From: Sipunculus nudus
Lineage: Eukaryota; Annelida; Sipuncula; Golfingiida; Sipunculidae
DNA length: 64,000 bases
NCBI GenBank assembly: GCA_026874595.1
Contig: CM049306.1
Location: 15,647,019 to 15,711,018 of the forward strand
Direction: 5' to 3'
Made by a program: the position numbers and the translations under genes. Positions 1,353-63,660 of the stretch are shown here, piece by piece (the first letter of the stretch is position 1; each line of letters starts with the position of its first letter). The notes under the pieces were generated by a model. It saw only the letters and a list, made by a program, of their open reading frames with translations. It was not told the DNA's origin and did not search any database.

Positions 1353-4300
1353 TAGCGCTGGACCTAGAACCTTGTAACTTGGGATTCTGAGAGGTCCATA
1401 AAAAATCTCCTAGGAAACCAGAAATTAGGCCTCTGTTACCCATATCCTTCGAGCTATGGGGCCCAAAGTACCCCCCCCCCCCCCGAAAAGTAACAAATTT
1501 CAGACAAAAACTTCAATATCTCATTAACTACTTGACTAATGGTCATGATTTTTGGCATACATATTGATCATGAGATGTTCCATCAGTTCCTGCAGACTGG
1601 TGGCGCCACCTGTATTTTTCGATTTTTACGAATTTTTTTCTCTATTTTTGAGACCTTTAAGGATGCTGTCATCTGTTAACTTGGCACAAATCATAACGAC
1701 TGGACCTAGAATCTTCATTCTCGACACACTGAGTGACCTATGAAAAGTCTCCATGGAAACCAGAAATTAGGTCTCTGTTACCAATATCCTTCGAGCTATG
1801 TGGCCCCAAAGTACCCCCCAGAAAAGTAAAAAATTTCATACAAAAACTTCAATATCTCAATAACTAAATCACTGATGGTCATGATTTTTGGCATACCTAT
1901 TGATCATGAGATGTTCCATCAGTTCCTGCAGACTGGTGGCGCCACCTGTATTTGATTTCTTACGATTTTTTCCTCTATTTTTGAGACCTTTAAGGATGCT
2001 GTCATCTGTTAACTTGGCACAAATCGTAACGAATGGACCTAGAATCTTTATTCTTGACACACTGAGAGACCTATGAAAAGTCTCCATGGAAATCAGAAAT
2101 TAGGTCTCTGTTACCCATATCCCTCGTGCCATCGGGCCCCAAAGTACCCCCCAGAATAGTCAAAAATTTCATACAAAAACTTCAATATCTCATTAACTAC
2201 ATGGTCATGATTTTCTGCATACATATTGATCATGAGATGTTTTATCAGTTTCTGCAGACTGGTGGCGCCACCTGTATTTTTCAATTTTTACGAATTGTTT
2301 TCTCTATTTTTGAGACCTTTAAAAATGTGAACAGCTGTTAACAGGGCACAAATCATAAAGACTGGACCTAGAATCTTCATTCTTGACACACTGAGAGGTC
2401 CATAAAAAGTCTCCATGGAAACCTGAAATATGGTCTCTGTTACCCATATCCTTTGAGCTGTGGGGGGGGGGGGGGAGGGCTCCCAATTACCCCCCCAGAA
2501 TAATGGAAAATTTGATACAAAAGCTGAAGTATCTGAACAACTATTGCAGAGATCATCATAATTGTTTGCATGGATATTGATCATGGAGTGTTTCATCAGT
2601 TTCTGCAGACTGGTGGCGCCACCTGTATTTGTTCGGTTTTTTTTAACGAATTTTTTCTCTATTTTTGAGACCTTTTAAGATATGAACATCTGTTAACAGG
2701 GCACAGATCATAACAACTGGACCAAGAATCTTCATTCTTGACACACAGGGAGACCCATGAAAAGTCTCCATGGAAACCTGAAATAAGGTCTCTGTTACCC
2801 ATATTCTTTAAGCTGTATGGCTCCAAAATACCCCTCCCCCCCCCCCCCCCCGCAGAATAATGGAAAATTTGGTACAAAAAATGCAGTATCTCAATTACTA
2901 CAACACTGATGGTCATGAGTTTCTGCATACGTATTGATCATGAGCTGTTCCATCAATTTTTGCAGACCGGGTGCGCCACCTCTATTTTTTTCAAATTTTT
3001 ACGAATTTTTTTCTCTTTTTTTTTTGGAGACCTTTAAAGATGTGGTTATCTGTAAACAGGGTACAAATTGCAACAACTGGACCTAGAATCTTCATTCTTG
3101 TCATGCAAGGAGGCCCATGAAAAGTGCCTGTGGAAACTTGAAATTAGGTCTCTGTTACCCATATCCTTCTAGCTAAAGGACTCCGAAGTATCCCTCAGAA
3201 TAATGGACAATTTGATACACAAGCTAAAGTATCTGAACAACTAATGCTGAGATCACCATGGTTCTTTGCATGGATATTGACCTAAGTGTTTTTATTAGTT
3301 TCTGCAGACTGGTGGAGCCACCTGTATTTTTGTATCTGCCAAAACGAAGTTTTGCGGATATTATGTTTTTGACCGGGTTCCTCTGCCGCCGCTGCGTTCG
3401 TTTCCAGAGAACTCCTTTGAGACTAATGGACCGATTTTTCCGAAACTTACACCAATTATCGGGTCGCATGTGAACTGGTGCCTAACCAATTTGCGTTGAC
3501 CTCTGACCTTTCCTCTCTGCCAAGCATCCATTTGGGCGTCTGTTTCTACACATAAATCCTCATATCTTGGGAACTGTTTGACCGATCAGGAAATAAAATT
3601 TATACAAATGTAGCCCTTGGATAGCTTTATAGCATACACAAAAAATGGTGGCGCCACCTGTAACCATGTTTGCACAGTGTCCATCTGATCATCTGCCTTG
3701 GGTTGAAATCACTCATATCTCTGCAGTGATGCATGCGTATACATCCTGGATAGCTTTCTTGATTTTATGACAGGTGGCGCCACCTACATTCACTTCACGC
3801 TGATGACATCCAAGCTCATATCTCGGGAACCGTTTGACTGATTGAGCAAAAATTTTGCATGTGTATAGATCTCACATAGCTCTTTATCATACGCAAAACT
3901 TGTGGCGCCACCCGCAACAATTTTTGCACAGCGTCCGTATGTTTGTCTGCCGTGGGATAATGTCACTCATATCTCGGCAGTGGTTTGACATATCTGCCTA
4001 AGAGTTTGCAGTTTTATACATCCATGATAGCTTTCTTGATTTTATGACAGTTGGCGCCACCTACATTCACGTTCACGCTGCAGACATCCAAGCTCTTATC
4101 TCGGGAATCGTTTGACCGATCAGGAAATAAAATTTATACAAATGTAGCCCTTGGATAGCTTTATAATATACACAAAAATGGTGGCGTCACCTGTAACCAT
4201 GTTTGCAAGGTGTCCATCTTTTTGTTTGCTGTGGGATAATGTCACTCAAATCTCGGCAGTGGTTTGACATATCTGCTTAAAATTTGGCAGGTTTATACAT

Positions 4301-5515
4301 CCTGGACAACTTTCTTGATTTTATGACAGGTGGCGCCACCTACATTCTAGTTAATGCTGCACACATCCAAGCTCATATCTCAGGAACCATTTGACCGATT
4401 GGGCCAAAATTGTGCATGTGTTTAGATCTCACATAGGTCTTTATCATACACAAAACTGGAGGGGCCACCTGCAACTATTTTTGCACAGCGTCTGTCTGTT
4501 TGTCTGCCATGGGATAATGTCACTCATTTCTCTGTAGTGATTTGACATAACTCCTCAAAATGTTGCAGGTTTATACATCCTGGACAGCTTTCTTGAATTT
4601 ATGACAGGTGGCGCCACCTACATTCTAGTTTACGCTGCAGACATCCAAGCTCATATCTCGGGAACTGTTTGAACGATTGGGCCAAAATTTTGCATGTGTA
4701 TAGATCTCACATAGGTCTTTTTCATACACAAAACTGGAGGGGCCACCTGCAACCATTTTTGCACATTTTGCACAGCGTCTGTCTGTTTGTCTGCCAAGGC
4801 CTAAAATCACTCATTTCTCTGTAGTGGTTTGACATATCTGCCTAAAATTTTGCAGGTTTATACATCCTGGACAGCTTTCTTGATTTTGTGACAGGTGGCG
4901 CCACCTAATTCTAGTTAACGCTTCACAAATCCAAGCTCATATTTCAGGAACCATTTGACTGATTGGGCCAAAATTGTGCATGTGTTTAGATCTCACATAG
5001 GTCTTTATCATACACAAAACTGGTGGCGCCACCTGCAACTATTTTTGCACTGCGTTTGTCGTTTTGTCTGCCGTGGACTAAAATCACTCATATACATGTA
5101 GTGGTTTGACTTTTCTGCCTAAAATTTCGCATATGTATACAACTTGGACAGCTTTCTGGATTTGTGGTAGGTGGCACAACCTACATACACATTTAGGCTG
5201 CAGACATTCATGCTAATATGCAACATACCTCACTCTATTTCCCCTTGCCACTCAATCCAAGCCTCACTTCACCCGTTCCACTGTGATTTTGGCGGATACA
5301 CAAAGTCACTTGTCGGCTACCCATATTCTAGTTTTTAAAGTTTACACATTTTTTCTCTATTTTTGAGATATAAAAATACAGCTTTATCTTGGCCTGTTGG
5401 TTAATCTGTTTGATGCTTCAGTTGAATGAGTATATACTACCATTCTGATGATAAAATTTCCTTTTGCGAATCTCTTCCCAGTCAGCTGAGCGTCATGACC
5501 CATGGGTCACTTGTT
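1353..5515 (-). mobile_element. A-type pearl-like element with six ~340-bp tandem units
   Basis: On the minus strand it begins at about 5514 with the hairpin ACCCATGGGT and GCTCAGCTGA, matching the intronic copy at 37772. Core units follow, each with the palindromic box, at 1601, 1937, 2262, 2613, 2970 (mutated) and 3313 (mutated). The spacing is 325-357 bp. Each unit carries a C/G homopolymer of variable length (14 C at 1471-1484, 14 G at 2462-2475, 16 C at 2836-2851). A C-type element is inserted at 3331-5331. There is no coding capacity; it is non-autonomous. Confidence 0.8.
3331..5331 (-). mobile_element. C-type hairpin element nested in the A element
   Basis: The right end reads on the minus strand CTAG, a degenerate hairpin around TAGCCGACAAGTGACT, then GTATCCGCCAAAA. 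The left end reads GTTTTGGCAGATACA. The host A sequence on both sides is a T-run (TATTTTT / TTTTTAAAG), so the insertion point is clear. Inside, the palindromic box recurs at alternating spacings near 127 and 150 bp (3648, 3774, 3902, 4052, 4329, 4608, 4894, 5023, plus decayed copies), a dimeric unit of about 280 bp. Confidence 0.82.
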
Positions 5516-5516
5516 T

Positions 5517-6397
5517 AACCATAGTCCTTAGAAAATAGGCAACAATGACCTGTGACTTTATTTAAGCTTTCCAAGAGGAGCTCCTTACATGATTAAATAG
5601 TTTCTATGTCAATCTGCTATGCCTTGTGTCCATCTGACTTATAGGGTACTGAAATCATGTCCTTTCATGCATGTATACAGTTCACAATATATAGTTCACA
5701 GTGACCTTATTTTGGATGTCAGAGACATTGCAATGACCTCTTAAGAAAGACATTTCTAGATCCAACACTTAAGATTTGTACCCTTTCTGACTTTTTGAGT
5801 GCTCAAAATTAGTTTTTTTTTCTCTGGGCGTAGCTTACAGAATATAGGACACAGTGACCTTATTTCAGAAATCAAAGGAGACTTGCCTAAGGCTTCCTTG
5901 GATATTCCATTAGAAGATTCTTGGGCTATCGGATACAATTTGTGTCCCCTCTGACCCACTGGGTACTCAAAGACATGTTTTCTGCCCGTAGTTCGCAAGA
6001 TATAGGTCACTATGCCCTTATTTCATGTTTCAAAGGAAATTGGCCTATAGAACCCTTCTGGATGTATAGTTAGAAGTTTCTATGTCTAACGGTTACGATT
6101 GGTGTTTTATTAACAACTGCTTCATTTGAAAGTATCACAAGAGAAAAAATACAGGTGGCGCCACCAGTCTTCAGGAACTGATGAAACACTCCATGATCAA
6201 GATGTATAAAAAGAATCATGGCAATCAAAGCATTCAGATTCTGGAGCTTTTGTATCAAATTTTAATTATTCTGGCAGGGGGTACTAACGAGCCTAATAGC
6301 TTTAAGGATATAGGTCAAACATATAGGATTCGATTTGTGCCCTGTAAAAGGACGAAGGACAAAGAGTGATCGCTGACTGAAGGTCTTCTGAGCTGAA
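5517..6397 (+). mobile_element. A2-type element, body and ACGG-side end
   Basis: Degenerate short units with the phrases TAGGTCAC, TGACCTTATTTC and GTTTCTAGG, one palindromic box at 6154, and an end reading GGACAAAGAGTGATCGCT. About 12 bases that form the left arm of the end hairpin in other copies are missing. The 5' part is likely 1200-1352. Confidence 0.6.
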
Positions 6398-6439
6398 AAA
6401 AAAATGAGTATGTATTGCATTTGCTAACATTTTACAAAA

Positions 6440-6474
6440 GTCAGCTGAGCTTGTGACCCATGGGTCCCTTGTTT
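6440..6474 (-). mobile_element. A-type hairpin terminus, minus strand
   Basis: On the minus strand it reads ACAAGGGACCCATGGGTCAC and then AAGCTCAGCTGAC. Only the end is recognisable; it abuts the A2 end at 6397, so the rest is deleted. Confidence 0.55.
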
Positions 6475-8030
6475 TCTGTTTTTGGGCTATTAAAGGTCAA
6501 ATCAACCAAAATGTATAAGTTTTGTGAACCCCATAACTTTTAAAGTATCTATACCTTCTTATCAGATGATGTAAAACAAAATGTTGATCATAGCCAGGGT
6601 CTTCAAGATCAGAGCAACTGAATTATAGTTAATCATATTTAGGATTTCTTGAGAACCTGATAACTTAGAAAGTATTGCATAATTCCCCCCTCAAGTATGA
6701 AGCGCAAGTTGTTTAAGCGTGGTTGACGACAATAAAAATTATGACCTTGCCCTTGATCTTCATTGTCCACTCTGAGGATTTTGTGATTATTATGATCCTG
6801 TAATGTTTGAAGCGCCGCATATTTATTCTTAACATTTGACACCCCAGTTGTTTCCACCATGTTCTCGGATGAGATCAGAAACTTGACCTTGATCTTCAAG
6901 GACAAATATACAGAATTATTTGATGGTTATGCTACATATTTTTTTCTTCAAATTTGACAGACAAAAAATGTTTCCTTCTGCTATATTCTCGGAGGAGTTT
7001 GAAAACTGGAGAGCAAGATCATTAAGACGATGTATGCAGAAATTTAGTATAAGTGTGAACCCTATAACTTTGAAGTACAGAAGATTTTCCCCTCATATTT
7101 GGCACACATGTTGTTTCCATGATGCTTTTTGACAAGGCAAAAAATTGTAACCTTCATCTTCAAATCAGCTGAATTTTAGTTCATCATCTCTTCAGGAATC
7201 CTTGTGAATGTGAAATTTTATATTTTATCCTCAAATTTGACAGACAAAAAAATGTTTCAACAACTTCACAGCAGAGTTTGAAAAATGGTGACCTTGAACA
7301 ACTTTTCTTTTACAACCTGTATAGACCGACAGATTTCTCTCATATTGTGCACATCCATAGATATGGATCATAGAATGAAAACTAAAATGGTTGACCCTGA
7401 TGTCACAGACCCATATCATTGAAAAGCTTGTTGATGCATTTTAAGCAAAACTTAGCATTCCAAACCTTTTATCTTTCATTGACATATTGCCTACCAAAAG
7501 TGGAAGAATCCTGTTGATGTTCAGTTCACAAGGCCAGAGGTCAAAGTCCCTTGACCATGACCTTCAAGTTCTGCAGAAATATATGATATTTGTTGATCCG
7601 ATTTCTTTAAAGTACTTCATACCATTCCCTCAAATTTGCTACATAAATTGTTTTAACCAAGGTCTTTGAGGAGTTTGAAAACTGGTGATTGTGACCTTGA
7701 TCTTCATGGTCTGATCTGTAAGGTGTCAATAGATGCTTCAGAAGGAGGGGCCTGTTTCAAAGGGAGTATGGCCAAAGACTTGGGATATGTACGGCATCTT
7801 TGATGCCAGAAATATTTAGTTTTCAGTGTAACCAGAATAACCAGAAACTTTCTTTTTCTTCTTTTTCAGGATTTACCATTATTAAGGATATATATCCATG
7901 CCTGGGATCATATCGTTGATACATTATTTGTAGGATTTGCCAGTTAACATTTTATTTTCAAAACAAGAATAAGAATATATCTGGCAGGAACCAGTTCCGG
8001 TTATTTTCACAAAACCTCAAAGGTGTTCTG

Positions 8031-8033
<3 letters not shown>
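6475..8033. repeat. Degenerate interspersed repeats with GACCTTGA phrases
   Basis: The phrases GTGACCTTGATCTTCA, AAATTTGACAGACAAAAAATG and GAGTTTGAAAACTGG recur at roughly 200-300 bp. This suggests old tandem core units of another element family. I found no clear termini. No coding exon recognised. Confidence 0.4.
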
Positions 8034-8105
<72 letters not shown>

Positions 8106-8112
8106 AGAGAGT
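8034..8112. repeat. Compound (AT)n-(AG)n microsatellite
   Basis: An AT run followed directly by an AG run, with one interruption at about 8100. The predicted small proteins across it are translation of the microsatellite and are not genes. Confidence 0.95.
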
Positions 8113-8290
8113 AACTCTCCGGTGTAAAGTGCTTTATTGCCTTCAGACAAGGCCAGAGCGATATAACACTGAAGAAAAACAACACTGAAAATTCACTACA
8201 GGCTGTTTCAGGAGTTGCGACCCGATCCTCAGGTGAATGTTGTTTAAACACAGACCAGAATGTTGTTAGTTACACAGACCAGTTGTAATT
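8113..8290 (-). mobile_element. Possible retroelement relic with hammerhead-like core
   Basis: On the minus strand the sequence contains CTGAGGA (8226-8232) and, 16 bases on, GAAAC (8205-8209), followed by AGCCTGTAGTGAA and AAGGCAATAAAGCAC. From memory, such phrases resemble the ribozyme-bearing terminal repeats of Penelope-like elements and related retroposons. Stem II is not canonical, so the ribozyme is probably decayed or the resemblance is partial. No reverse transcriptase is visible. Confidence 0.35.
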
Positions 8291-8381
8291 TTTGAGTCAC
8301 TGGCGTACTTTTCATGGTAGCTGTTACTTTATTTGTAAATCACAAACAAGTTAACAATTATATGTGTAAAATATGTTTTTT

Positions 8382-8420
8382 GCAAGGGACCCATGGGTCA
8401 TGATGCTCAGTTGAAAAGCA
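8382..8420 (+). mobile_element. A-type hairpin terminus
   Basis: Reads CAAGGGACCCATGGGTCATG then ATGCTCAGTTGA. The sequence after it has no recognised units or opposite end, so the element length is unknown. Confidence 0.55.
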
Positions 8421-9198
8421 TGATGACATGATACAATGGGTTAACATTCACGACTCATATTTTTAAAAGGGAATGTTTCACTCGAGAAGATGGAAGTTTA
8501 CAAAATGTTTGTATTGACTTTTTTTTAATCCGGAAAAAGAAAGAAAACTTATCTCCCTAATCTTCATAACTCCCTTGGAATAAATTGAATTCTGGACAAC
8601 ACTAAGGAAATGGCAGTTCAGTCATTTTGACTATAAGTATGTGTTTGGAAGACTATATTTTACGGCTGCTGTATCTACAAATAATGGTATGGTTACCACT
8701 TTTGACACATGTTTGGCAGTTGCCATCATGCCATATTGATTTTTTAAGGGGGGGGGGGGCAAAGTAACCCAAGTTACAGTGTATATGATAAAATCTGCGA
8801 AAGGAACTCGAATTCAAAATTAGGTTTGTATATCCCCATTTTAACAGACAGATATACAGCCAAAAGACATATATGTTGATCTCCAGTGCTCACGTGGGGT
8901 GCAGTAACCGGACTTATAAATAAGTAATGATAGATGCTTTATTGGTATTAAGCTGCACTGATTTTACTTTTGGAAATTTTCAAAACATTCAAACCAGATG
9001 TGTAACATATATTGATATAATAAAACCAGTTGTTAATAGAAGTTTGTACTACAGCCTATGATATTGCTCAGAACTAATCCTGTCAACTTTTTTTTAAATT
9101 CCTGGTATGAGAAACCCCCTAAAAGTCTGTGTCATAAACTCGGCAGGTCACGTGTTTTCAAAGCAAAAACACTGGGTTATATAAGAAATTCCTATGCT
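8421..9198. other. Unassigned sequence after A terminus
   Basis: Contains a 12-base G run (8748-8759). It could be the body of an A-like element without palindromic boxes. No coding exon seen. Confidence 0.3.
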
Positions 9199-9406
9199 AA
9201 GGAGGTTATGTTTTGCTAGTGTTGGTATGTTTGTCTGTTTGTTTGTCAGCATAATTACTCGAAATTTATTAACGGGTTTTGATGAAATCTTCAGGATAGT
9301 TCGGCAATGATACAAGGATCAATTTATTATAATTTTTTCTTACAGTGTCATATGGGGGTAATGAGCTGCCTTGGTGGAGGTCTTTGCTCTCTCAGTGCTT
9401 TTCTAG
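9199..9406. mobile_element. Short HINE-like interspersed element
   Basis: Begins AAGGAGGTTATG, passes through TTTGATGAAATCTTCAGGA and ends with CTTGGTGGAGGTCTTTGCTC, TCTCAGTGC and CTAG. From memory, this resembles a short repeat widespread in marine invertebrates. The CTAG end after a short stem fits the hairpin elements elsewhere in this window. Confidence 0.5.
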
Positions 9407-9684
9407 TTGCAGTTGAATTTAATGCTGAAGACAAAATAACTAATATCTGCATCATCAGTGATAAAATAAATAGATGCCACTGACAGAACTAGAAATATTA
9501 TGCCTTGTTATCGTATCACCCTTTGAAATAGACCCCTTGGTTAGACCCATATCTTCATAGGTTGCAGAAGTAGTCTTATTAAACTGGTACAGCTGTCTGG
9601 GTGCAATTATGACCTTGCTAATCTTGCTAATGTATGGCTGATACCTGTGGACAACATTTAAAAAGAAATCTGCGCAATATTTTT
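9407..9684. other. No feature recognised
   Basis: A 94-residue minus-strand reading frame crosses here. It runs into a repeat end and has no recognisable domain, so I do not call it a gene. Confidence 0.4.
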
Positions 9685-11630
9685 TTAGCGAACCTGTGAG
9701 CTTATGCGATGATGTGGCGTCGTCCGTACGTAAACTCATACTATCTCAAAAATGACAGGAGCTAGTATCACCAAATTTTATGCAAAAGAATCAGTCATTT
9801 AAAGAATTCTGTCGGATTTTGCTTATTTTTTCTATCTGCATGTACTTAGATTTTATAGGGTTAAGGGTAAAAAAATCTTTAAAAATCTTCTCCGTAACTG
9901 TTCAGCCGAGTTAGAAGAAGCTGAACTAGGAATTTTGACGGAAAAAGCATACTCAATTTACGGTATCAGAAACGGCGGGAGCTATCATCACCAAATGCTA
10001 TGCAAATGTTTCATATTTAAAATTGAGGTATTAGTGGCGCCACCTGCATTAACCTTTTTTGTACGTGGGTCATCGGTCATCAGTACATTAATCCATAATT
10101 TCTCAGAAATATCAGGAGCTAGCATCTCAAAATCTCCAGCAAAAGTCAGGTCAATATCAAATGTTGTGGGATTGGGGGTTTTAGTGGCTCCACCAGCATC
10201 AACCTTTTACGGGGAAAAGCTTGAAAACCTTTGAAAATCTTTTTCTCCAAAATTATTTATCTAGATTGTTAAATATTTCACAGAAATTATCCGAGAGACG
10301 AGCTCTCTCATGTTTAATTAAATGTTTTGGTCGAGTTACAGGAATTTGCACTTAGTCATGTCATTTGGCCAAGTAAGCATAATAACATAACAATCTCAGA
10401 AACGACAGGGACAAGCATTACCACCAAGATTTGTGAAAATGTTTGTCACGATTTATATTCGAAATTGAGATTTTTGCGGCGCCAACTTCATCGACTTTTA
10501 CGGGCAAAAACCTCGTAATTTTAGCCTCTTTCAGCTTACAAATTTTTTATGATGAAATGGTTTAATTTTTCATAAGAATTATTCTAGGGTAGGGTGCTTT
10601 TAATTGTATAAGAAAAGATTTGGATTATTGATTTTTTGGTAGAGTCATAGAAAGCTGAAGTTGGTCTTGCGGCCTTTAGTAAGCCTATTTCAAACTGAGT
10701 GCTGCAATAGTCTTCTTTTGCAAAACTGTTGTTTTAACTTCTGTGACACTGCACACAAAAAAATATTCTTAGGTGGCTTTTGTTCAAGTTTAATGAAATG
10801 ATTTTGGCAGAATATAAAAATCTTATGAATATGCAGAATATGTATAAACAGATTTGGCAAAATGCAAAATTTTATCTGTATCTATAAATAGCTTGGTAGA
10901 CTTCCAACTGTATCAGATTTTGCAACAAGTCAAGAGTTCACTCCGTGCAGTAGCTGCAGCTCTGGCACCTGACTCAAGAGAAGTTTGATGTATCTGCCTG
11001 AAATTTTGGCCTCTCCATGCATCTTTGATGGCTTAAGCGTACACATCGACTGATGTCACCACCTACAATGATTTTTGCAGTTAATGTACCTGCTTATTTC
11101 TCAGGAGAGATGATATATCAACCTGAAATTGTGCATATCAATACATATCGGAAAGCTTCGTTGTATACAAGACTGGTGGCGCCACCTACAATAATTTTTG
11201 CACAGTGTATTCTTCTGCTTATTTTACAGGAGTGATTTGACATATCAGCCTGAAATTATGCATGCCGATATATCTTTGATAGTTTTGTGTATAAAAAGCT
11301 TTGTGCCGCCGACAACAATTGTTTTTGGGTTTCATGCATCTTTGAAAATAGCCAAAATTGGTTCGAAGTATCTGCCTGAAATGTTGCATGTCCTTCACAC
11401 CTTCGATAGCTTTCTTTTACACAAGACTGGTGGGGCCACCTATATCCATGCATGTATATCAGGAGTGACGTTTGTGTAAATGGTGCTTATTCTCGGGTTC
11501 AAAATGTTTAGTACTTGCATTGTACATATACACGTCACACGTGTACTTGAAAAGTAATGGTTCAGCATTGAAGCATTATATCAGATTTATATCCCTTTGC
11601 ACAGGTTTGCGTTAGGCCTGTAGTTTTTGT
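9685..11630 (-). mobile_element. D-type hairpin element
   Basis: The left edge is, on the minus strand, the microsatellite-side end: GACGCCACATCATCGCATAA, GCTCACAGGTTCGC and TAA. The right edge is the hairpin side, where CTACAGGCCTAACGC and AAACCTGTGCA show partial loss of the first hairpin arm. The subterminal motif GCGAACCTGTG recurs inverted. Internal boxes lie at 10033 (one base off) and 11175 (exact). It shares body sequence with 20884-25004 and 33008-35215. Confidence 0.7.
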
Positions 11631-11962
11631 TTTAGTTCTATAACGCAGCTTGTTTCCAGTATGACTGAACTGGGGTGAAATGTGTAAAATGAATTACAGG
11701 TGCCCCAAATATCTTCTATTTAGCCCCTTCAGACATTCTAATTTTCAGAATATTTAATCCTTTCTTGAGATTTCCAATATTTTGTGTGATTTTAATCTAA
11801 AATGGACCTATTAAATATGTAAGCTTTTGAAGTTTGATATATATGAAAAAACTCATTGAATATCCAGATAGCTGCAGAAAATGAAAATGATAACTTTAAA
11901 ATAGGCCCTTTCTGATAGTGGACATCTGTTCAATAGAGATAATTCCTTGAATTTTTTTTTAA
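11631..11962. other. No feature recognised
   Basis: AT-rich sequence between a D element and an A-type terminus. No exon or repeat unit seen. Confidence 0.4.
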
Positions 11963-12000
11963 CTAGGAACCCATGGGTCTCGATGCTCAGCTGAATTTGT
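11963..12000 (+). mobile_element. A-type hairpin terminus
   Basis: Reads CTAGGAACCCATGGGTCTCG then ATGCTCAGCTGAATTTG. The opposite end was not found; the element may have been cut by later rearrangement. Confidence 0.55.
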
Positions 12001-12771
12001 CCATAAGGATACTTTTACGAGCTTTTATAAACAAAAATAAAAAGGTCAATTTTGATTCACAGACAGGCGCCACCCACAGCTAACATTAATGTAATAGTTA
12101 TATCATCAATATGCCTGTTATATTAAATGCTTATAATTGCAACATTTTCTGAGATATTTGATAACAGACATATATATTGGGTACACAAAAACCTGAAATC
12201 ATAAACTTTTATGATAAGTAAAAAGAAAGGGTTTAGTGACAAGAAGAATCAATTTTGAAAATACTTTCTTAATTTATACTTGTTAAATTCTCCTTTCTCC
12301 TTTCTAGCTTTTCCCCCTAAAATATAAGTCAATGCAGGTGGCGACACAAAAAAATTCTTTCCCACAATATTGACTGTGACTGATTTTTGCATAATATTTG
12401 GTGATGCTAGCTCCTGCTGTTCCTCAGAAAATATGGGTTATTGGACTGATGACCTAAAGAGTGATGCAGGTGGCTCCAACAATTCCTCAATTTCATATAT
12501 GACTCGTGACCATGAATTTAACATGAAAAATCATAACATTAATCTTTTTTATGCATCCAGTCCATGGGGGATGGGGGTGTGGTGGTCTGTATTCCATATG
12601 AATTGTTTACCTTCTCTTAGTACTAAGTTAACCAGACAGTTTCTAAAACTTATACATTCACAACGTAGTTTATATTTATAAAAAGAGATAAACATAAAAT
12701 TTAGAAATTTTATTTCAAGTTGCATTTTACACCTATCTTTACAAAAATTTGGCCAGCCATCTTACAATAAA
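12001..12771. repeat. D-like core fragment and unassigned sequence
   Basis: Between about 12310 and 12540 the phrases GCAGGTGGCGACACAAAAA, TTTGGTGATGCTAGCTCCTG and ATGCAGGTGGCTCCAAC match D-element core sequence (compare 34480-35000). The rest is AT-rich and unassigned. Confidence 0.5.
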
Positions 12772-13261
12772 TTAGAATACCGGCAGTTCACAAGCGACCT
12801 CATGTATCCGCCAATTCACAGAGGCATTGGTGAAGTAAGGCATTGAACATTCCTGATATGACATGACTCCAATGTTGTGGCATCAGTGATGCCAATTTAA
12901 CTCCTAATATATGTGCATTTTCCCCCCAAAAAATTATCTGTAGTAGGATACACCATTCATAATTTCATGCGGAGACACCAATCCACTATTGAGAATTAGT
13001 GCATCAATGTATTCTATCAAACGGAACAGCAGGTGGCATAACCTGTGTGGCATACAACAAAGCTATCCAAAACGGAAAAACATGCACACTATCTGGTTGA
13101 TACATCCATCAACTCCTGAGATATGAGCGCTTTTTACCCAAAGCAAATGGACAGATGGACACCACGCGAAAACAATTGCAGATGGCGCCACCAGTCAACA
13201 TTACGAGATGGAGGTATTTAAGATCCATGGACATGCACAATTTTAGGCCAATATGGCAAAT

Positions 13262-14618
13262 CAGCGGCGTTCCTAACAACATTGCCGCCCGGGGAGGTCT
13301 TAGAAATTGCCGCCATACTTGCAAAACATTTCAATACTGGACAATTTATGGAAACATTTCACATCAAATTCCTTGTTATAGGCTTTTAGTTGACAACAAC
13401 GCAATTATATGGATGAATAATTCATTGGCAGGAAATTCCTTCGCCACACATTAAAGAGCAATCATCCCTATGTTAATGTAAATCAAATAATCGCTCTTAA
13501 TTAATGCACAGAAAAGAAAACACTGCAGGATACACAAATAAATTGGTAATTTAATTTTTCATGTGAACACGATTTTTATAAATTATGATTAGCTTAAACT
13601 CAACATAGAAAATGCATATAAATACCTTGTCGCTTCTATAATTCGACCTCTTGTTATCGCATATGACAACAGCTATAAACCTAGCTGAGCACTGTGATAT
13701 GCATGGTACTGCAGCTAGCAAAGATTAGTAGTATTTAAAACGCCTAAATTGCATGATTAATATGAAAGCAGGGCCAGTTTAATGTTTTAGGATAAAGAAA
13801 AATACAGTGTTTGGATAATCTGGGACTTTTTTTGGCTAATTACAAAAGTTAAAAGCATCAATTTCTGACATACTATCTCGTACGTACGACATATTATCTC
13901 GTATAAATAATAAATTCTATAACCAGTGGTATACCAAAAGACTCATAAATTCTGATTGTACTCAATATATTCCCGAGGTTATTAACGTTTATATTTTTAA
14001 AAATCTTACAACATGTTGTAAGAGTATGGAGATGCATGAAAAGGGGGATTTCAGGCTGTATAAATACCATGGAATTTTGGGGAATTTTAAGATTTCAAGA
14101 GTTGAAATTCTTAATACATTCCAAGGAAAGAGCAACATAATTCGTCATATATAATATGTTCCGCACACTGTGTAAAACAGACATCCCACCCCCACCACCA
14201 TGGGCGATTGGTCTTCTGGCAGCCCCCCCCCCCCCCCCCTGCCCCCTATTCAGTGCCCCCAAAGGAATTCTGCAAACGTACACCCTGAAATGTACGCCTT
14301 TGCATGACAGGTCAGATTATTAATTGCGTTCTTACATGACACGACTGCCGAACTAATAAAGAAAGGTAACAGATCTGTATTTCATTTTGCGTTGCTTGCC
14401 TCTATAGCGATAGTTCGCAAATCATTTGGTTGGTTCCAATGTCCAGTTTATAATTCCTTAACTACTTGAAATGGGACGCATAGCCAAAATGAACCAACCA
14501 TTTAAATATTCTCACATATCTCGAAAAAGGCCAAATTTGTAATTGTTGGAGACCTCCTAATGCCACTTCGTTATACTAATTCCCCGAAATACCGCCCCAA
14601 AAAATAGGTACGCCACTG
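13262..14618. mobile_element. Non-autonomous hAT-like DNA transposon in the C element
   Basis: Ends are CAGCGGCGTTCC on the left and, inverted, CAGTGGCGTACC on the right (10 of 12 identical). It splits a C core unit at CCAATATGGCAAAT / CAGCAAACCACT. The expected 8-bp target duplication would be TGGCAAAT and CAGCAAAC, only partly matching. A 17-base C run lies at 14223-14239. No transposase is visible. Confidence 0.6.
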
Positions 14619-15429
14619 CAGCAAACCACTTCTGAGGGCATCAGTCTATTCTAAGAAAATGGGAAGGTAGGTGGCCCCAACCGGTCTGGTTTATGAGAAA
14701 CCTCTCCAAGATTGATGGACATGCCAAATTTCAAACAAAGATATTGAACGATTCCTGAGAGTGAGATTTGTGCAATTATCACCCACAGCAAACACAAGTA
14801 TGGATGCCACGGAAAAGCGGTTGCAGATGGCGCCACCAGTCTCTTTTGCGAGACTGAGGTAACCAAGATCCTTCGACATGCACAATTTCAGGCCAATACG
14901 ACAAATCACTCCTGAGAAAAGGGCGTTAATTTATTCTACAAAAACGGGAAGGTAGGTGGCGCCACCTGTCTGGTCTACGGGATTACTCGCCAAGATAGAT
15001 GGACATGCGAAATTTCACATCATTAAATTGAACCACTCTTGAGATATGAGCAATTTTCACCCAAAGTAGACGCACGGATGGACGCCACGCAAAGAAAATT
15101 ATAGATGGCGCCACCAGTCATAAGTACAAGATGTAGGTAACCAAGATCTATGGACATTTATAATTTCAGGCCAATACAGCAAACCAATCCTGAGGAAAAG
15201 CCATCCATGTATTCTATGAAAACGGGAAGGTAGGTGGCGCCACCTCCTGGTCTACAAGAATACTCTAAAAGATGGATGGACATGCCAATTTCCAGAACAC
15301 AAAATTGAATAACTCTTGAGATATGAGGAATTTACACTCAAAGCAAACGCACGGATGGATGTCACACGAAAACAATTACAGATGGCTCCACCAGTCTTGA
15401 GTACGAGATGGAGGTATAAACTTTGAGAT

Positions 15430-20883: not shown

Positions 20884-23800
20884 CAAGGCCTACAGGCCTA
20901 ATGCGAACCTGTGCATTGGGAAATACACCAGGTTTATTGCTTCAATACTGGACCATTACTTTTCATGTATATGAACAATGCAAGTACTAAACTTTTTGAA
21001 TAAGAAACAATTACACAAACATCTCTGCTGAAATTCTGGCATGGGTGCACACAACACCAAAACGATTGTAGCTGGCACCACCAGTCTTGTATACTTCGAA
21101 GCTATCAGAGATATACACATATGCCAATTTTCAGACTGATATTTCAAACTCCTCCTGAGAAATAAGCAGGGACACACATTGTGCAAAAATTATTGTAGGT
21201 GGCACCACCAGTCTTGTATACGACAAGTATACGATAATTAAAACTAGAAAACGGGTAGTCGACAAGCGACTACGGGTATCCGCCGAAATCAGAGTGGAAC
21301 GGGTGAAGTGAGGCATGGATTGAGTGGCAAGGGAAATAGAGTGAGGTGTGTTGCATATTAGCATGGATGTCTGCAGCCAAAATGAATATGTAGGTTGCGC
21401 CACCTACCACAAATGCAGAAAGCTGTCACATAAATGTAGGTGGCGCCACCTGTCATAAAATCCAGAAAGCTGTCCAGGATGTATAAACCTGCAAGATTTT
21501 AGGTAGTTATGTTAAATCACTACATACATGTGAGTAATTTTATCCGGCGGCAGACAAACAGACGGACGCAGTGCAAAAATGGTTGAGGAGGCGCCACCAG
21601 TTTTAAATATGATAAAGAGCTATGTGAGATCTATACACATGCAAAATTTTGTCCCAATCGGTCAAACGGTTCCCGAGATATGAGCTTGGATGTCTGCAGC
21701 GTAAACGTGAATGTAGGTGGCGCCACCTGTCACAAAATCGAGAAAGCTATCCAGGATGTATAAACCTGCAAATTTTAGGTGGATATGTCCAACCACTGCC
21801 GAGATATGAGTGATTTTATCCCATGGCAGACAAACAGTCGACGGACGCTGTGGAAAAGTGGTTGCATGTGGCGCCACCATTTTTAGTGTATGTTTTAAAG
21901 CTATCCAAGGGTATAAAATTTTAGCCTGATCGGTCAAACGGTTCCCGAGATATGAGCTTGGATGTCTGCAGCGTAAACGTGAATGTAGGTGGCGCCACCT
22001 GTCACAAAAATCGAAAAAGCTATCCAGGATGTATATGCATGCCGAATTTCAGGTGGATAAGTCCAACCAATGCAGAGATATGAGTGATTTTATCCCAAGG
22101 CAGATAAGCAGATGGACGTAGTTCAAAAATGGTTGCAGGTGACGCCACTATTTTAGTGTATGTTATAAAGCTATCCAAGGGCTACATTTGTCTAAAATAT
22201 TTAGCCTGATCGGTCAAACGGTTCCCGAGATATAGGGGTTTATGTGTGGAAACAGACGCACAAATGGACGCAGAGCGCAGAGGATAGGTCAGAGGTCAAA
22301 ACAAAATCGGGGCGCAGTTCACATGTGACCCGAACATAATTTCGGATTTCGTAATATTCCGCCCAGCGGTTACAGAGGAGTTCTCCGGACACCTACCTGG
22401 CGCCGGCGGCGGCGGCGGCAGCGTCCGACTGACTCTGTTTTGGCGGATACAATAAGATAGGTATAAATATGCCCAATTTCAGGATGATATATCAAATTCC
22501 TCTATAGAAATAAGCAGGCACAAAAGTCACACACTGTGCAAATGTAATTTTATGCGGTGACACCGGTCTTGTGAACGAGAAACCCATCAAAGACACATAG
22601 ACAGGTCAAAATATTAGGCCAATACATCAAACTTACCTTAAGTTTGATGCATGGGGCTGACCACGCTTAGGTGAGAAAGGCAGTTGCCCCGAGTGAACTG
22701 TGACAAATTTGCTAGACAAGGCTACTGCACTGAGTGAACTCAGAACCTGTACCTGGCTGAACTGAGTGAACTCTTGACCGGTTGCCTAATCTGATACAGT
22801 TGGCAGTCAGCCAAAGCTATAAATAGATTGGCTCCACATGCAGCCCTGAGGGGCATGACACCCATGAGGTGATCACATGGTGCCCATGAGGTGTTCACAT
22901 GTCACCTATGAGGAGATCACATGCCTTGTGCTTGGCTGCACTGACTGAACTCTTGACCTTTATCTGGCTGCACTGAATGAACTCTTGATCTATTGCAAAA
23001 TCCGAAACAGTTGGCAGTTTCTAAACCTATGTAAATATACAGACACAATCTTGGCCTGTTGGCAAATCTGTTTACACATACTGAAAACTTTAGCTAAAAT
23101 GCTTTTTTTCAAGCTAAAATATTCATAAAATTTTTATCAAAATATCTAGAAAAATAAAAAATTCAGTTCTTTCATTGTCAAAGGTCCAATAATTCTGCCA
23201 AAAATCATTCAAGTAAACTTGAACAAAGGCCACCTAAGAAAAATTTTTGTGCCATGTAACAGAAGTTATAATTGAAACAATAATTTTGTAGAAGAACAGT
23301 TTTGCAGTCCTCAGTTTGAGTTAGACATAATAATGGCCATAAGACCAGCTTAAGTTTTTCTGATATTAAGTTTTTCAAGATATTCCTAGCCTGCCACTAG
23401 GGGAGGATCTGTTTGATTTTTGGGTCATAGGTCAAAGGTCAAGGTCACAGGGCCCATCCATTCACAAATTAGTTTATGGATGATTATTCTGCTTTGGATA
23501 GACAGACTGGCTTCAAACTTGATTTAATAATGACCAACCACATATGTCAATTCATTTTGATTTTCAGGGTCCAGCGATCTAAGGTGAAGGTCACAGAAGC
23601 CACACCTTTAAAAAGATTGTGGTTGCACTGTAAATCAAACTTTTCATCCTGAATTTTCCAACGTTCACACATGGCTTACTTGCCCAAAGTGAGGAAACCT
23701 GTAGAATTTGAGGTTATCTGGTCAGAGGTCAAGGTCACTTTTTAAAAGATTGTTACAATAATCCTAAAAGCAAGTTCAAGGATATTAAGTTTTTTGAATT

Positions 23801-25004
23801 TAAGTTTTTGAATAACTTAAATCATAAATCTAAATTTTTTAAAAGTTTTTAAAAAACATTCTTGTCAATATTAACCAAAGATAACCTGAAATCTAAATGT
23901 CTGGAGGCATGATGTAACGGATGCTGATAAACTGGTTCCAGGCTAGATGTATCTGCTTAACGAGCTAACATATATGGTAAAATGACTCAATTCAATCTTT
24001 ATTATTCAGCCAAAATTCATTCTTTGAACCATAAAAGACAATTATTATAAGAATTATTCAGGGGATTATTCTTGTAAAATATTAAACAAATATGCCTCAG
24101 TGGCGTCAGTTAAAAAAGTTTTGCAGGTTTATAACTCATATGGGAAAATAAAGCAAAATGGCTAAGTTAAGCTTCCAATAACTCAGCCAAAAATCATTGA
24201 ACCAAAACCATTTGAACAAACTTGAATTATCAGCATATAAAGATAATTAATGTGTGAGATTTAAGAATTTGGCCCAGTGATTTTTGAGAAGAAGATCTTT
24301 GTAGCCACTGAGCTTAAATGGGCTGTTATGGCATATAACTAAATTCAGCTTCCCATAACTCAGCCAAAAGTCACTGAACTGAGACCATTTGAACAAAATT
24401 CAGAAAGCACTACCCTAGGATCATTTCTGTGCGATATTAAAAAATTTGGCCAAATGGTTTCAGAGAAGAAGTTTTTTGTAGCTGTCAGTATGATACGGGC
24501 ACTGATGACCCCCGTTCAAAAAAGGCCGATGCAGGTGGCGCCACCAATACATGAATTTCAGACATGACTCATGTGACCAACATTGGCATAAAATTTGGTG
24601 ATGACAGCTCCAGCCGTTTCTAAGATTGTAATTTTAGTATACTTTTTTGGACAGATGACTAAGTGTACCTCGGCCAAAAATCACCAAACTTAAACCATTT
24701 GAACAAATTTGAGAGAGATTGTTCCAGGGATCATTTCTGTGAAATATTGGACAATTTGGCTGAACAGTTTCGGATAAGAAGATTTTTAAAGCTTTTATAG
24801 CTTTTTCTCTATAAAATTTAAGAAAATGCATTTAGCCAAAAAATAAGCAAAATTCGATAGAGTTTTTTAGATGACTAATTTTTTGCAGAAAATTTCTTGA
24901 TGCTAACTCTTGCCGTTTTCAAGATAGTATGGGTTAACGTACAGACGACGGACGACGGCCGACGGACGACGCCACACCATCGCATAAGCTCATAGGTTCG
25001 CTAA
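20884..25004 (+). mobile_element. D-type hairpin element nested in B
   Basis: Begins CAAGGCCTACAGGCCTAATG, a hairpin, then CGAACCTGTGCA. Ends with a GACGGACGACGG tract, CACACCATCGCATAAGCTCA and TAGGTTCGCTAA; GCGAACCT recurs inverted. It holds a C element at 21244-22454. A block around 23365-23965 with GGTCAAAGGTCAAGGTCAC may be a further insertion. The exact box near 24535 is D's own. Confidence 0.82.
21244..22454 (+). mobile_element. C-type hairpin element nested in D
   Basis: The left end is CTAGAAAACGG, the perfect hairpin GTAGTCGACAAGCGACTAC, then GGGTATCCGCCGAAATC. The right end is GGCGGCGGCGGCGGCAGCG and CTGTTTTGGCGGATACAATA. Dimeric core units have exact boxes at about 21438, 21716 and 21986 and decayed ones between. 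D sequence resumes after it at TATAAATATGCCCAATTTCA. Confidence 0.85.
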
Positions 25005-25872
25005 CAATCCATCAATAAAAGTAGGAATTATCATCCAGAAACTAAATTTTTGACATGACCTTTGACCTTGTGGCCCCAAAATTTATATGGATCATCCACT
25101 ATTGGCAAGTGAGCAATATATTCAAGATGGAAGACCTGGGATGAAAGTTTGGCTTAAAATGCATCCACAGTATCTTTAAGATGCGAGTCCAGTGACCTTG
25201 ACCTTTGACCTCATGACCCTAGAACCTATAGGGTTCTTACTTTAGTGGTGGGCCATACATACGTCACGTTTGAAATCCCTATGGCTATCAACACTGGAGA
25301 TATCATATGAGGCGTGTGATTTTCACCAAATATGGACACATTAAAGGTCAAGGCAACTCTCATGGTAAAGGTCATGACCCAAATGTAAATAGACCTCATC
25401 CCATTACCAATCTCTCTACATGAACATAATATGAAAGAAATCTGTCCATTAATTTTTTACAAATAATGCTTACAGTACTGTCAAGTGGCAATTATGAGGG
25501 TATTAAAAAAGGTAAAAACAAGAAAAGGGTAATTGGTGGCGCCACCAGTTTCCGGTATATCACAAGGCTATCCAAGATCTTCGGTCACCTTGATTTTTGG
25601 ACCAGTCCATGCAAGCTTAATTGAGATATTTAAGAATTTGTGTTATTTTCAGCAAAAATGGACCTATTCAAGGTCAAGGTCACTCTCCTAGCATAGGTCA
25701 TGACCCCATTTTAAATAGGCTTCGTCCCCTTACCTAATATCTATACAAATGTAAAGTTTGAAAAAGATCAGTGAAATATTTTTTTAGTTATCCCGCTCAA
25801 AAGGTTTTTCTGCGGCGGCGGCGGGACCGTCGTGATACCATAGTATCCCGACTTTGTCTGGGGATACAATAA

Positions 25873-26500: not shown

Positions 26501-26524
26501 CTCCTGGAGGACTTCAAAATCTCC

Positions 26525-31988: not shown

Positions 31989-33005
31989 TTTAACTGTAGC
32001 CATTTAAATTGGATATTACAAAAGTAATCATGTAATCATATCTGATTTTCGATTACACTGGGAGAGTAATTGATTACGATTACTTTGCTTTAAAAACTAG
32101 AATGTCGACTACGTGTATCCGCCAAAATCAGAGTAGGATGGGTGAAGTGAGGCATGGATTGAGTGGCAAGGAGAAATAGAGTTAGATGTGTTACATATTA
32201 GCATGGATGTCTGCCACGTAAACATGATTGTAGGTGGCGCCATCTGTAATTTGAACAAGAAACTATAAAAGATGTATACACACGCAAATTTCAGGTGGAA
32301 AGTCAAACCACTGCCGAGATATGAGTGATTTTATCCCACAGCAGACAAAACAGATAGACGCTGTGCAAAAATGGTTGCAGGTGGCGCCACCAGTTTCTTG
32401 TATTGTAAAGAGCTATGCGAGATCCAAACACATGCAAAACTTCAGGAAGATACATCAAACCAGTCCGGAGTTGGATATCTCCAGCATGAACGTGAACGTA
32501 GGTGGCGCCACCTGTCATAAAATCAAGAAAGCTATCCAGGATGTATACGCATGCCAAATTTAGGTGAATTAGTCAAACCACTGCAGAGATATGGGTGATT
32601 TTAACCCAAAGCAGACAACAGATGAACACTGTGCAAACATGGTTGCAGGTGGCACCACCATTTTTGTGTATGTTATAAAGCTATCCAAGGGCCATATTTG
32701 TACAAATTATTTTTCCTGATTGGTCAAACGAGTCTGAAGATATGTTGGTTAATGTGTCAAAACAAGACGCATAGATGGACGCACTGGAGAGAGGAAAGGT
32801 CAGAGGTCAACCCCAATTGGTTAGGCACCAGTTCACATGTGATCCGATAATTGGTGTAAGTTTTGGAAAAATCAGTCCAGTAGTGTAAGAGGAGTTCTCC
32901 GGAGACGAACGCGGTGGCGGCAGCAGAACCCGGTCAAAAAACATAGTATCTGCAAAACTGTTTTGGCGGATACAATAAATGTATTCGATTAAGATTACAA
33001 TAACT
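31989..33005. mobile_element. hAT-end-like sequence split by a C element
   Basis: AAAGTAATCATGTAATCATA and AATTGATTACGATTACTTTG before 32096, and TATTCGATTAAGATTAC after 32979, look like one block of GTAATCGATTAC repeats cut by the C element. The other end of the hAT-like element is not visible. Confidence 0.5.
32097..32979 (+). mobile_element. C-type hairpin element
   Basis: Left end CTAGAATGTCGACTACGTG and TATCCGCCAAAATCAGAG: one hairpin arm is shortened. The right end is GCGGTGGCGGCAGCAG and CTGTTTTGGCGGATACAATA. Boxes lie at 32233 (one base off), 32380, 32503 and 32650 (decayed). Confidence 0.82.
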
Positions 33006-37182: not shown

Positions 37183-61376
<24,194 letters not shown>

Positions 61377-62049
61377 CTGATCACAGATTAAAAGGTACAT
61401 GAGAGCAAAGTTCTGAAGTAACTTTTCATTTTCACAAAAAATTAGCATGTTTTCTTTGCCTTTTAGTGTACTGCTGATGAATGTAACCAATCAAAAAACA
61501 ACACACAGTCACTTTTTGAGGCAATTAACAATTTTGGCTGGCTGAATCTGACAAATTCAACCCCTGTATTTGCACATATAAGAATGACTGGACACGTTAC
61601 GACAACTGGGTGGCTAGGGGTGTTTAGAAGGGGGGTGGGGGATTATTGATATTGTCAGAACAGTCACTGCAAATCTCAGCATTAAACAAAAGTATGCCAT
61701 TATTATGATAATAAATGCATGACCTTATACTTTATATATCCTTAACTATAAAGCATATCTCAACTGTTCAAAAAAGGGAGGAATATTTGTCAATAGCAAA
61801 TGTATGATAAAGGGGGGAAACCACATCCAAAAGTTATATGGCCATCTAATGTCACATTTTAAATTGTAAATAAACTATTAGAATAGTTGCAAAAATGTTG
61901 ATGCTCTTGTGACTGAGATAGCTGATACATTATAGGGGGACAAAGTTGCTAATTGTCAGTATCCAGTATCAGATGACCTGTACATACCAACTAATACAAA
62001 TAAATACCCACCTAAAAGCCAAAGCTCCAATAACAGAACTAAACTCTGA
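61377..62049. other. UBA1 intron sequence, upstream exon not found
   Basis: I searched the minus strand for the preceding N-terminal coding segment (a GLYSRQL-like ending) and saw none. Upstream UBA1 exons must lie beyond the inserted repeats. Confidence 0.45.
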
Positions 62050-63660
62050 ACAAGTGACCCATGGGTCATGACGCTCAGCTGAATGGAAAGAGATTCGCAA
62101 AAAGGAAATTTTATCATCTGAATGGTAGTATATACCCATTCAACTGAAGCATCAAACAGATTAACCAACAGGCTGAGATTGTGTCTGTATTAATATATCT
62201 AAAAAATAGAGAAAAAAATTAAAAAAAAAAAAAACAGGTGGCTCCACAAGTATGCAGAAACTAATAAAAACACTTAATGGTCAATATCCATGCAAAGAAG
62301 CATGGTGGTCTCTGGATTAGTTGTTCAGATACTTCAGCATTTGTATCAAATTGTCCATTATTCTGAGGGATACTTCGGAGTCATATAGCTTGAAGGATAT
62401 GGGAAACAGAGACCTAATTTCAGGTTTCCACAGAAACTTTTCATGGGCCTCCTTGCATGACAAGAATGAAGATTTTAGGTCCAGTTGTAACGATTTGTAC
62501 CCTGTTGACAGATAACCTATTCTTTAAAGGTCTCAAAAATAGAGAAAAAAATTCGTAAATATTTGAAAAAAAATAGAGGTGGCTCACCCAGTCTGCAGAA
62601 ACTGATGGAACACCTCATAATCAATATGTATGCCAAAAATCATGACCATCAGTGTTGTAGTTATTGAGATACTGCAGTTTTTGTATCAAATTTTTCATTA
62701 TTATGGGGGGTATTTTGAAGCCATACAGCTTAAAGGATATGGGTAACAGAGACCTAATTTCAGGTTTCCATGGAAGCTTTTCATGGATCTCCCTGTATGT
62801 CAAGAATGAAGATTCTAGGTCAAGTTGTTATGATTTGGGCCCTGTTTACAGATGTTCATATCTTTAAAGGTCTCAAAAATAGAGAAAAAAATTCCTAAAA
62901 AATTGAAAAATACAGGTGGCGCCACCAGTCTGCAGGAACTGATGGACCATCTCATAATTAAAATTTATGCCAAAAATCATGACCGGCAGTAATGTAGTTA
63001 ATGAGATATTGAAGTTTTTGTATGAAATTTTTTTGCTATTCGGGGGGGGGGGGGGGGGGGGGGTACTTTGGGGCCCCATAGCTCAAAGGATATGGGTAAC
63101 AGAGTCCTAATTTCTGGTTTCCATGGAGACTTTTTATAGGTCTCTCACTGTGTAAAGAATGAAGATTCTAGGTCCAGTCTATACGATATGTGCCCTGTTA
63201 ACAGATGTTCACATTCTTAAAGGTCTAAAAAATAGAGAAAACTATTCGTAAAAAATCGAAAAATGTAGATGGCGCCACCAGTCTGCAGAAACTGTTGAAA
63301 CATCTCATGATCAATATGTATGCCAAAAATCATGACCATCAGTGATGTAGTTAATGAGATATTTAAGTTTTTGTATGAAATTTTTTACTATTCTTGGGGG
63401 TACTTTGGGGCCCCATAGCTCATAGGATATGGGTAACAGAGACCTAATTTTAGCTTTCCATGGAGACTTTTCATAGGTCTCCCTGTGTGTCAAGAATGAA
63501 GATTCTAGGTCCAGTCTTCCGATTTGTGCCCTGTTAACAGATGTTCACATTTTTTAAGGTCTCAAAAATAGAAAAAAAAATTCGTAAAAAATCGAAAAAT
63601 ACAGGTGGCGCCACCAGTCTGCAGGAACTGATGAAACATCTCATGATCAATATGTATGCA
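62050..63660 (+). mobile_element. A-type element, near-copy of 37772-40344, cut by A3
   Basis: Its start and first two units closely match 37772-38620, including the same decayed boxes GGTGGCTCCAC and GGTGGCTCACCC. Units three and four of the other copy are absent: 62916 corresponds to 39316. Boxes lie at 62238, 62580, 62916 (exact), 63271 and 63605 (exact). A 22-base G run is at 63042-63063. It breaks at ATATGTATGC, where an A3 element begins. Confidence 0.85.

What the first reader, a model, noticed from the sequence alone, without database searches (positions are those of the whole stretch)
1353..63660. One 12-bp palindrome, GGTGGCGCCACC, is the fixed point of otherwise different repeat families
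Families A, B, C and D have unlike termini and unlike core units (about 340, 330, 280 and longer), yet their tandem units carry GGTGGCGCCACC, usually as (C/T)AGGTGGCGCCACC followed by AGT or TGT. I count roughly 30 exact copies by eye plus many one-base variants. Keeping a palindrome while the rest of each unit diverges suggests a function (protein binding, replication, recombination between units) or repeated exchange of a module between families. A3, and the second array of the long C element, lack it, so it is not an unavoidable part of the architecture.
Basis: partly seen in the sequence, partly recalled or inferred. Interest (0 to 1): 0.8.

Follow-up and report, generated by a model that had tools for sequence, protein, structure and literature searches.

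The report
Repeated 12-base box in mobile elements
In this animal genome one 12-letter mirror-image DNA word sits inside several families of jumping DNA in roughly a hundred thousand copies, changes less than the rest of each repeat, and looks like a landing site for the genome-folding protein CTCF, although binding has not been shown.

Summary
The window has 29 exact and 28 one-mismatch copies of GGTGGCGCCACC (0.03 expected); the 1.43-Gb genome has 111,757 exact sites, reversed control 14. F/G units, and E, show at most weak flank similarity to those, yet carry the box. Units found with the box masked keep it better than their flanks in six of seven families. But differences private to one copy hit box and flank equally (16/1595 v 231/25369): the box seems kept in spreading lineages, not in single insertions. 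Evidence for that is moderate. Every family consensus matches the CTCF core YAGRKGGCRS 10 of 10 on one strand. The genome encodes CTCF with human-like recognition residues in fingers 3-5, and holds the full CTCF motif about 26 times above expectation. Against CTCF: the upstream CCA half is missing in nearly all families, and the symmetry is unexplained. Best reading: a CTCF-core-like site kept by selection on the element; binding untested.

The parts
1356..3331 (-). A1 tandem array (about 336-bp units) with boxes at 1599, 1935, 2261, 2612, 3311 and a two-mismatch box at 2969; strand = strand on which YA precedes the box
3330..5337 (-). C1 element nested in the A1 element: about 280-bp units with two boxes each (3647 to 5170), left module near 3330, right module near 5337; ends approximate
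10033..10194 (-). F units, the reverse complement of G, with one-mismatch (10033) and two-mismatch (10183) boxes
14639..15416 (+). C2 array: units with GGTGGCGCCACC (C2a) and GATGGCGCCACC (C2b) alternating
21240..22462 (+). C3 element, boxes from 21393 to 22138
24534..24545 (+). G unit with exact box; another G unit nearby (24837) lacks it
25200..25870 (-). B-related element with one box at 25535 (prefix TT on the + strand; the other strand reads CT-box)
32106..32994 (+). C4 element, boxes 32233 to 32648, perfect 14-bp subterminal inverted repeat
37770..40320 (+). A2 element: modules with a perfect 10-bp subterminal inverted repeat, GTC-type microsatellite and palindrome; boxes 37955 to 39997
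50440..52690 (+). B element, six boxes 50716 to 52360, 40 scored genome matches to one unit at 99-100%
53520..54416 (+). C5 element, boxes 53678 to 54104
62049..63665 (+). A4 element, boxes 62237 to 63604

Best explanation
The repeats are the tandem cores of HINE-like (Helentron-associated, non-autonomous) mobile elements. The box is a protein-binding site kept by selection on the element while it spreads, and the likeliest protein is the host's CTCF. On the strand with YA in front, it reads as the triplets of CTCF fingers 6-5-4-3: nYA GGT GGC GCC. The palindrome offers GGTGGCGCC again on the other strand, three bases shifted, so CTCF could sit in either orientation, one molecule at a time. 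Several boxes per array would hold CTCF, perhaps with cohesin, on the element and keep it open or insulated from silencing until it is copied. After insertion a copy's box is not maintained and decays like its surroundings. Shown: anatomy, copy number, conservation pattern, CTCF gene, motif match. Inferred: binding, insulation, benefit to the element.
For: All 9 family consensi (F and G are one family on opposite strands) match YAGRKGGCRS 10 of 10 on at least one strand (consensus from a legend of PMC6746451). YA is present on a strand at 97.0% of exact genome sites. Finger triplets ZF6 NNA, ZF5 G(G/A)N, ZF4 GGC, ZF3 (A/G)(C/G)(T/C) are printed in PMC8629902. The genome's CTCF (L056) has human CTCF as its best solved match, E 5.4e-107, with identical helix residues -1, 2, 3, 6 in fingers 3, 4, 5 (read by eye). 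CCASYAGRKGGCRS occurs 5,310 times in the genome, 176-242 expected, reversed control 76 with 51-99 expected. Fixed variant C2b GATGGCGCCACC keeps the motif (R). Box above flanks in units found with it masked; private differences equal, shared ones fewer in the box.
Against: The CCA half read by finger 7 is absent: CCAS 0 or 1 of 4 on the matching strands, except E with 3; PMC8629902 says fingers 4 and 7 bind the most invariant bases. Known CTCF motifs are not palindromic, while ACC at positions 10-12 is invariant in all nine consensi. Finger 6 differs from human at three of four recognition positions. Variant spectrum does not discriminate. Genome counts of single changes, both strands: G2A 9,527, G4A 4,607, G5A 3,798: the order fits CTCF, but G2A is swollen by the C2b subfamily. 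The shared/private contrast is weak when events are counted: recent copies p=0.35, six families p=0.028; by cells C alone p=0.29 and family A p=0.67.
Confidence: 0.42

Rival explanations
1. Another host protein, probably a dimer (an E2F/DP-like or other zinc-finger factor), binds the palindrome, for instance to link copying of the element to S phase.
For: Exact symmetry kept on both halves in seven of nine consensi is what a dimer needs. The centre TGGCGCCA is also the centre of the E2F palindrome TTTGGCGCCAAA (recalled, from no call).
Against: 8 of 12 letters fit the recalled E2F palindrome; the T and A arms are replaced by invariant GG and CC. It does not explain the YA in front at 97.0% of sites. 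No such factor was looked for in the genome.
Confidence: 0.25
2. The box serves the element's own machinery: a Rep or helicase site, a fork-stalling or recombination point that makes and keeps arrays.
For: Conservation looks element-level. The box recurs in every main unit type and units with it expand in tandem. A C end is joined to the first box unit of A at five places.
Against: Two Helitron-type copies with 2.2-kb-residue frames (2229 and 2230 aa; L057-L060) have no box of their own in the 16 kb read around each; five boxes beside one lie in an adjacent C-type repeat. Their ends were not found, and they may not be the partners. Boxless tandem arrays exist.
Confidence: 0.2
3. No function: the box is a remnant of one ancestral unit that stayed by chance, hitch-hiking and young age of the copies.
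For: A, B, C and C2 right flanks are related. Many copies are young (B 99-100%; A mostly 94-98%). Event-based tests are weak. Some flank windows are as conserved as the box (Ca 2, Cb 12, B 8 of 109), and in recent copies the box's shared-change density is not unusual (128 and 167 of 382 windows in A, 44 and 116 of 214 in C are as low).
Against: The box is kept in all nine consensi (10 to 12 letters pairwise) while flanks between A-C2 and E or G are mostly at chance: 5 of 48 z values reach 2, best 3.3. In the wider sets only 0, 2 and 6 of 98 flank windows are as low in shared change (A, Ca, Cb).
Confidence: 0.13

Closest known systems
Cg_HINE elements of the Pacific oyster (PMC7492417; passages and section 7 read)
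   Same: Left module with subterminal inverted repeat, its inverted copy and a microsatellite; tandem array; right module with subterminal inverted repeat and palindrome; some elements with two consecutive arrays; monomers of one cluster share two conserved segments with otherwise dissimilar monomers.
   Different: The passages read name no 12-bp palindrome or CTCF; the letters of their conserved segments are in a figure and were not seen. Whether they include this box is unknown.
CTCF sites spread by retrotransposons in mammals (Schmidt 2012, seen only as a reference; otherwise recalled)
   Same: A mobile element carrying a CTCF-like core in very many copies.
   Different: Here a DNA element of Helentron type, an internal tandem array, a palindromic core without the CCA half, and no binding data.
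Mutator terminal repeats at placozoan loop anchors (PMC12221973; passages)
   Same: An element-borne motif that may be read by an architectural protein.
   Different: That motif is in terminal inverted repeats and rests on Micro-C data, in animals that lack CTCF according to the passage.

Membership tests
HINE (Helentron-associated non-autonomous element) | Subterminal inverted repeats in both end modules | tested here: met
   A2 10 bp perfect; C4 14 bp perfect; C1 14 bp with 1 mismatch; C5 only 9 bp with 1 mismatch. B 11 of 12 by eye; the script's B cut was too short to test it.
HINE (Helentron-associated non-autonomous element) | Inverted copy and microsatellite in the left module | tested here: inconclusive
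   A2: 9-bp inverted copy and GTC-type microsatellite; B: GCC-type microsatellite; none found by the script in C1, C4, C5.
HINE (Helentron-associated non-autonomous element) | Palindrome at the end of the right module | tested here: met
   7-bp stems in A2 and B; C3 and C5 show a stem of about 6 bp by eye, below the script's limit; C4 is shortened.
HINE (Helentron-associated non-autonomous element) | Autonomous Helentron partner with matching ends | tested here: inconclusive
   Helitron_like_N gives 143 matches; the two copies read show none of five end patterns of A, B, C except one hit inside an adjacent C-type repeat; their own ends were not found.
CTCF binding site | Core YAGRKGGCRS | tested here: met
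   10 of 10 on at least one strand in all 9 consensi.
CTCF binding site | Upstream CCAS of the full human consensus | tested here: not met
   0 or 1 of 4 on the matching strands, except E + strand 3 of 4; so not filed as a canonical site.
CTCF binding site | A host CTCF able to read the core | tested here: met
   Gene present; fingers 3, 4, 5 with human recognition residues, finger 6 changed, finger 7 similar.
CTCF binding site | Occupancy by CTCF | not testable with these tools
   No ChIP, CUT&RUN or ATAC data for this species here.
E2F palindromic site | TTT and AAA arms around GGCGCC (recalled) | tested here: not met
   Arms are GGT and ACC in seven of nine consensi, GAT/ACC in C2b, AGT/ACC in F.

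The most novel reading that the evidence does not exclude
HINE-like elements have sown over 100,000 palindromic, orientation-neutral CTCF core sites in tandem clusters through a 1.4-Gb genome, about twenty times the number of full CTCF motifs. The site is selected in the element, not in the host, and acts as a sink or insulator that could reshape how CTCF folds this genome.
Probability: 0.3. Interest if true: 0.85.

Novelty: new variant of a known kind. Interest (0 to 1): 0.6.

Why it matters
If CTCF binds the box, this would be a DNA-transposon counterpart of CTCF sites spread by retrotransposons in mammals, in a spiralian, a group for which a review calls knowledge of genome folding very sparse (PMC10658182, passages). 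It would also be a natural test of what a palindromic CTCF core does to loop direction. If another protein binds, the box leads to a factor on which Helentron-like elements depend. In either case, comparing differences private to one copy with differences shared by several is a simple way to ask whether a repeat motif serves the element or the host.

Tried and rejected
Literature. The string GGTGGCGCCACC occurs in 1 paper of the library, by its listing on an unrelated subject, a chitinase. Searches joining CTCF with molluscs, Helitrons or satellite DNA, and tandem repeats with Helentrons or bivalves, listed no paper whose title or printed abstract start describes this box (lists are capped). 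Figures and supplements were not seen.

Copy-level (host) selection. A first look at 20 + 20 copies plus the window copy hinted at a deficit of changes in the box (p=0.15 and 0.09). With 40 A and 38 C copies plus the window copies the deficit lies in shared differences only, so copy-level selection is not supported.

Substitution spectrum as a CTCF test: inconclusive. Mismatches per position in 169 units are 3,15,2,13,3,28,36,6,13,12,5,8. Positions 6-7 fit CpG decay in part; positions 2, 4, 7 and 9 include fixed subfamily variants.

Autonomous Helitron-type copies as carriers of the box: not supported for the two read; element limits unknown.

Method flaws. The box-masked models C2b, E, F and G came out one column off; I shifted them by one after seeing the letters; cause not found. 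Model seeds were box-like units, so families without any box could not be found. Seven of 15 fetched regions were chosen because they held exact boxes. Of 452 profile hits, which overlap between families, 196 distinct units with at least 20 of 30 flank columns on each side were kept. Searches used units above a score limit and collapsed near-identical ones. Cell counts are not independent, so p values are too small; one search counts each variant once. DNA searches scored only 40 of 2,548 to 3,771 candidates, the closest ones.
Full report
WHAT IS THERE. The window is C1:15,647,019-15,711,018 of an unnamed 1.43-Gb genome. It holds 57 copies of GGTGGCGCCACC with at most one mismatch, 29 of them exact, against 0.03 expected. 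The genome holds 111,757 exact sites; the pattern read backwards gives 14. Counted on both strands this is 223,514, where Markov models of the sequence predict 15 to 27. The box is clustered: of 8 random 10-kb windows one (L011) has it with at most one mismatch, two have a single two-mismatch copy, five have none.

CARRIERS. Families A, B and C end in modules like those of oyster Cg_HINE elements (PMC7492417): a left module with a subterminal inverted repeat and an inverted copy of it, with a microsatellite found in A2 and B; a tandem array; and a right module with the subterminal inverted repeat and a palindrome. The fit is good in A2 and C4, poorer in C5, and B was read partly by eye. B and C share the end sequences AAACTAGA and GATACAA. 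At five places (window, L002 twice, L006, L004) the end of a C element is joined to the first box unit of an A array; an A array at L003 has no C element there. Only in the window did I also see the other side of the nested C element, with the A module beyond it. The two L002 copies may be a local duplication. B is young: 40 scored matches to one unit are 99-100% identical, the window's own included. That the host is a mollusc, probably a bivalve, is an inference from this resemblance alone.

DESCENT. With family consensi anchored on the box, A, B, Ca, Cb, C2a and C2b share similarity on the right side (z 1.7 to 9.3, lowest A-B) and on the left in Ca-C2a and Cb-C2b. F is the reverse complement of G (z 12.2 and 6.1); E resembles F on one side (z 4.2). 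Between the A-C2 group and E or G, 5 of 48 z values reach 2; the best are Ca and Cb with G on the left, 3.0 and 3.3. So there are at least two unit lineages, perhaps anciently related. The consensus box is exact in seven of nine consensi and one letter off in two (C2b GATGGCGCCACC, F AGTGGCGCCACC).

CONSERVATION. With the box masked, profiles found 196 units: 76 have an exact box, 58 one mismatch, 27 two, 12 three, 23 more. Non-CpG box columns are better kept than flanks in six of seven families tested (A .960 v .854, Ca .947 v .867, Cb .923 v .841, C2a .933 v .839, C2b .976 v .825, B .986 v .928). G is the exception (.729 v .764), because some of its units have lost the box. E and F were too few to test. 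CpG columns of the box are better kept than flank CpG in A, Ca, Cb, C2a and C2b, equal in B, and not comparable in G.

WHO SELECTS. In 41 A and 39 C unit copies (window copies included), differences seen in one copy only hit box and flank alike outside CpG: 16 of 1,595 and 231 of 25,369 cells (1.00% and 0.91%). Differences shared by two or more copies are rarer in the box: 12 and 594 cells (0.75% and 2.34%), mainly in A (2:9 shared to private against 331:123, p=0.0003), not clearly in C (10:7 against 263:108, p=0.29). In the wider sets of A, Ca and Cb the ratio is 46:20 in the box and 1844:188 in flanks, again uneven: A p=0.67, Ca 5e-7, Cb 0.03. Counting each variant once, the contrast is 12:25 against 340:323, p=0.028, over six family sets (only Ca alone is significant, p=0.003), and 5:16 against 129:231, p=0.35, in the recent sets. 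I read this as moderate evidence that the box matters while elements multiply, and as no sign that single inserted copies are maintained.

WHAT MAY BIND. The genome has a CTCF gene (C11:67.04 Mb). Its best match among solved structures is human CTCF, and by eye the helix positions -1, 2, 3, 6 of fingers 3 (T,G,E,R), 4 (E,S,K,R) and 5 (D,Y,K,R) are identical to human; finger 6 differs at three of these positions, finger 7 at two by similar residues. The human consensus is CCASYAGRKGGCRS (legend in PMC6746451), with ZF7 NCA, ZF6 NNA, ZF5 G(G/A)N, ZF4 GGC, ZF3 (A/G)(C/G)(T/C) (table in PMC8629902). The box with its prefix, nYA GGT GGC GCC, fills fingers 6 to 3, and YA is on at least one strand at 97.0% of exact sites. 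All nine consensi match the ten-letter core completely on one strand, but the four letters before it fit only in E (13 of 14 overall). The full 14-letter motif occurs 5,310 times in this genome against 176 to 242 expected, while its reversed control, 76, is near the 51 to 99 expected. So the full CTCF motif seems in use here, and exact boxes outnumber it about twentyfold. Some of these full motifs may themselves lie in repeats; the printed list shows recurring forms close together.

LIMITS. The palindrome and the missing CCA half are what a simple CTCF reading does not explain. Two overlapping, inverted core sites would explain the symmetry only if binding in either orientation is useful. A dimeric protein remains a serious rival. 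No binding, expression or accessibility data were available.

VERDICT. 'Otherwise different families' needs softening: A, B and C are one class of element, and A, B, C and C2 units share an old ancestor. The proposed function is plausible, at the level of the element rather than the host, with CTCF the first protein to test.

Noticed in passing
L057-L060 (C4:36.17 Mb and C3:43.36 Mb): Two Helitron-type elements with open frames of 2229 and 2230 residues, about 94% alike over 7.7 kb, with many internal repeats on both sides.
   Followed up: partly
window:50440-52690: B elements are very young: 40 scored matches to one unit at 99-100% on many contigs; a good entry point to catch activity.
   Followed up: partly
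G000 genome-wide: The full CTCF motif CCASYAGRKGGCRS is about 26 times more frequent than expected (5,310 copies), with forms such as CCACTAGGGGGCGC recurring a few kb apart, as if some are carried by another repeat.
   Followed up: no
L008:1481-2595 and 4924-6893: A 172-bp tandem array (97% matches) and 30-bp tandem arrays without the box in a random window.
   Followed up: no
window:37955, 38302, 62237, 62583 and L002, L004, L006, L007: First and second units of A arrays carry their own fixed defective boxes (GGTGGCTCCACC; GGTGGCNCACCC), and one Cb unit a fixed GGTAACCCCTCC in L002 and L006: units keep their position in the array between copies.
   Followed up: no
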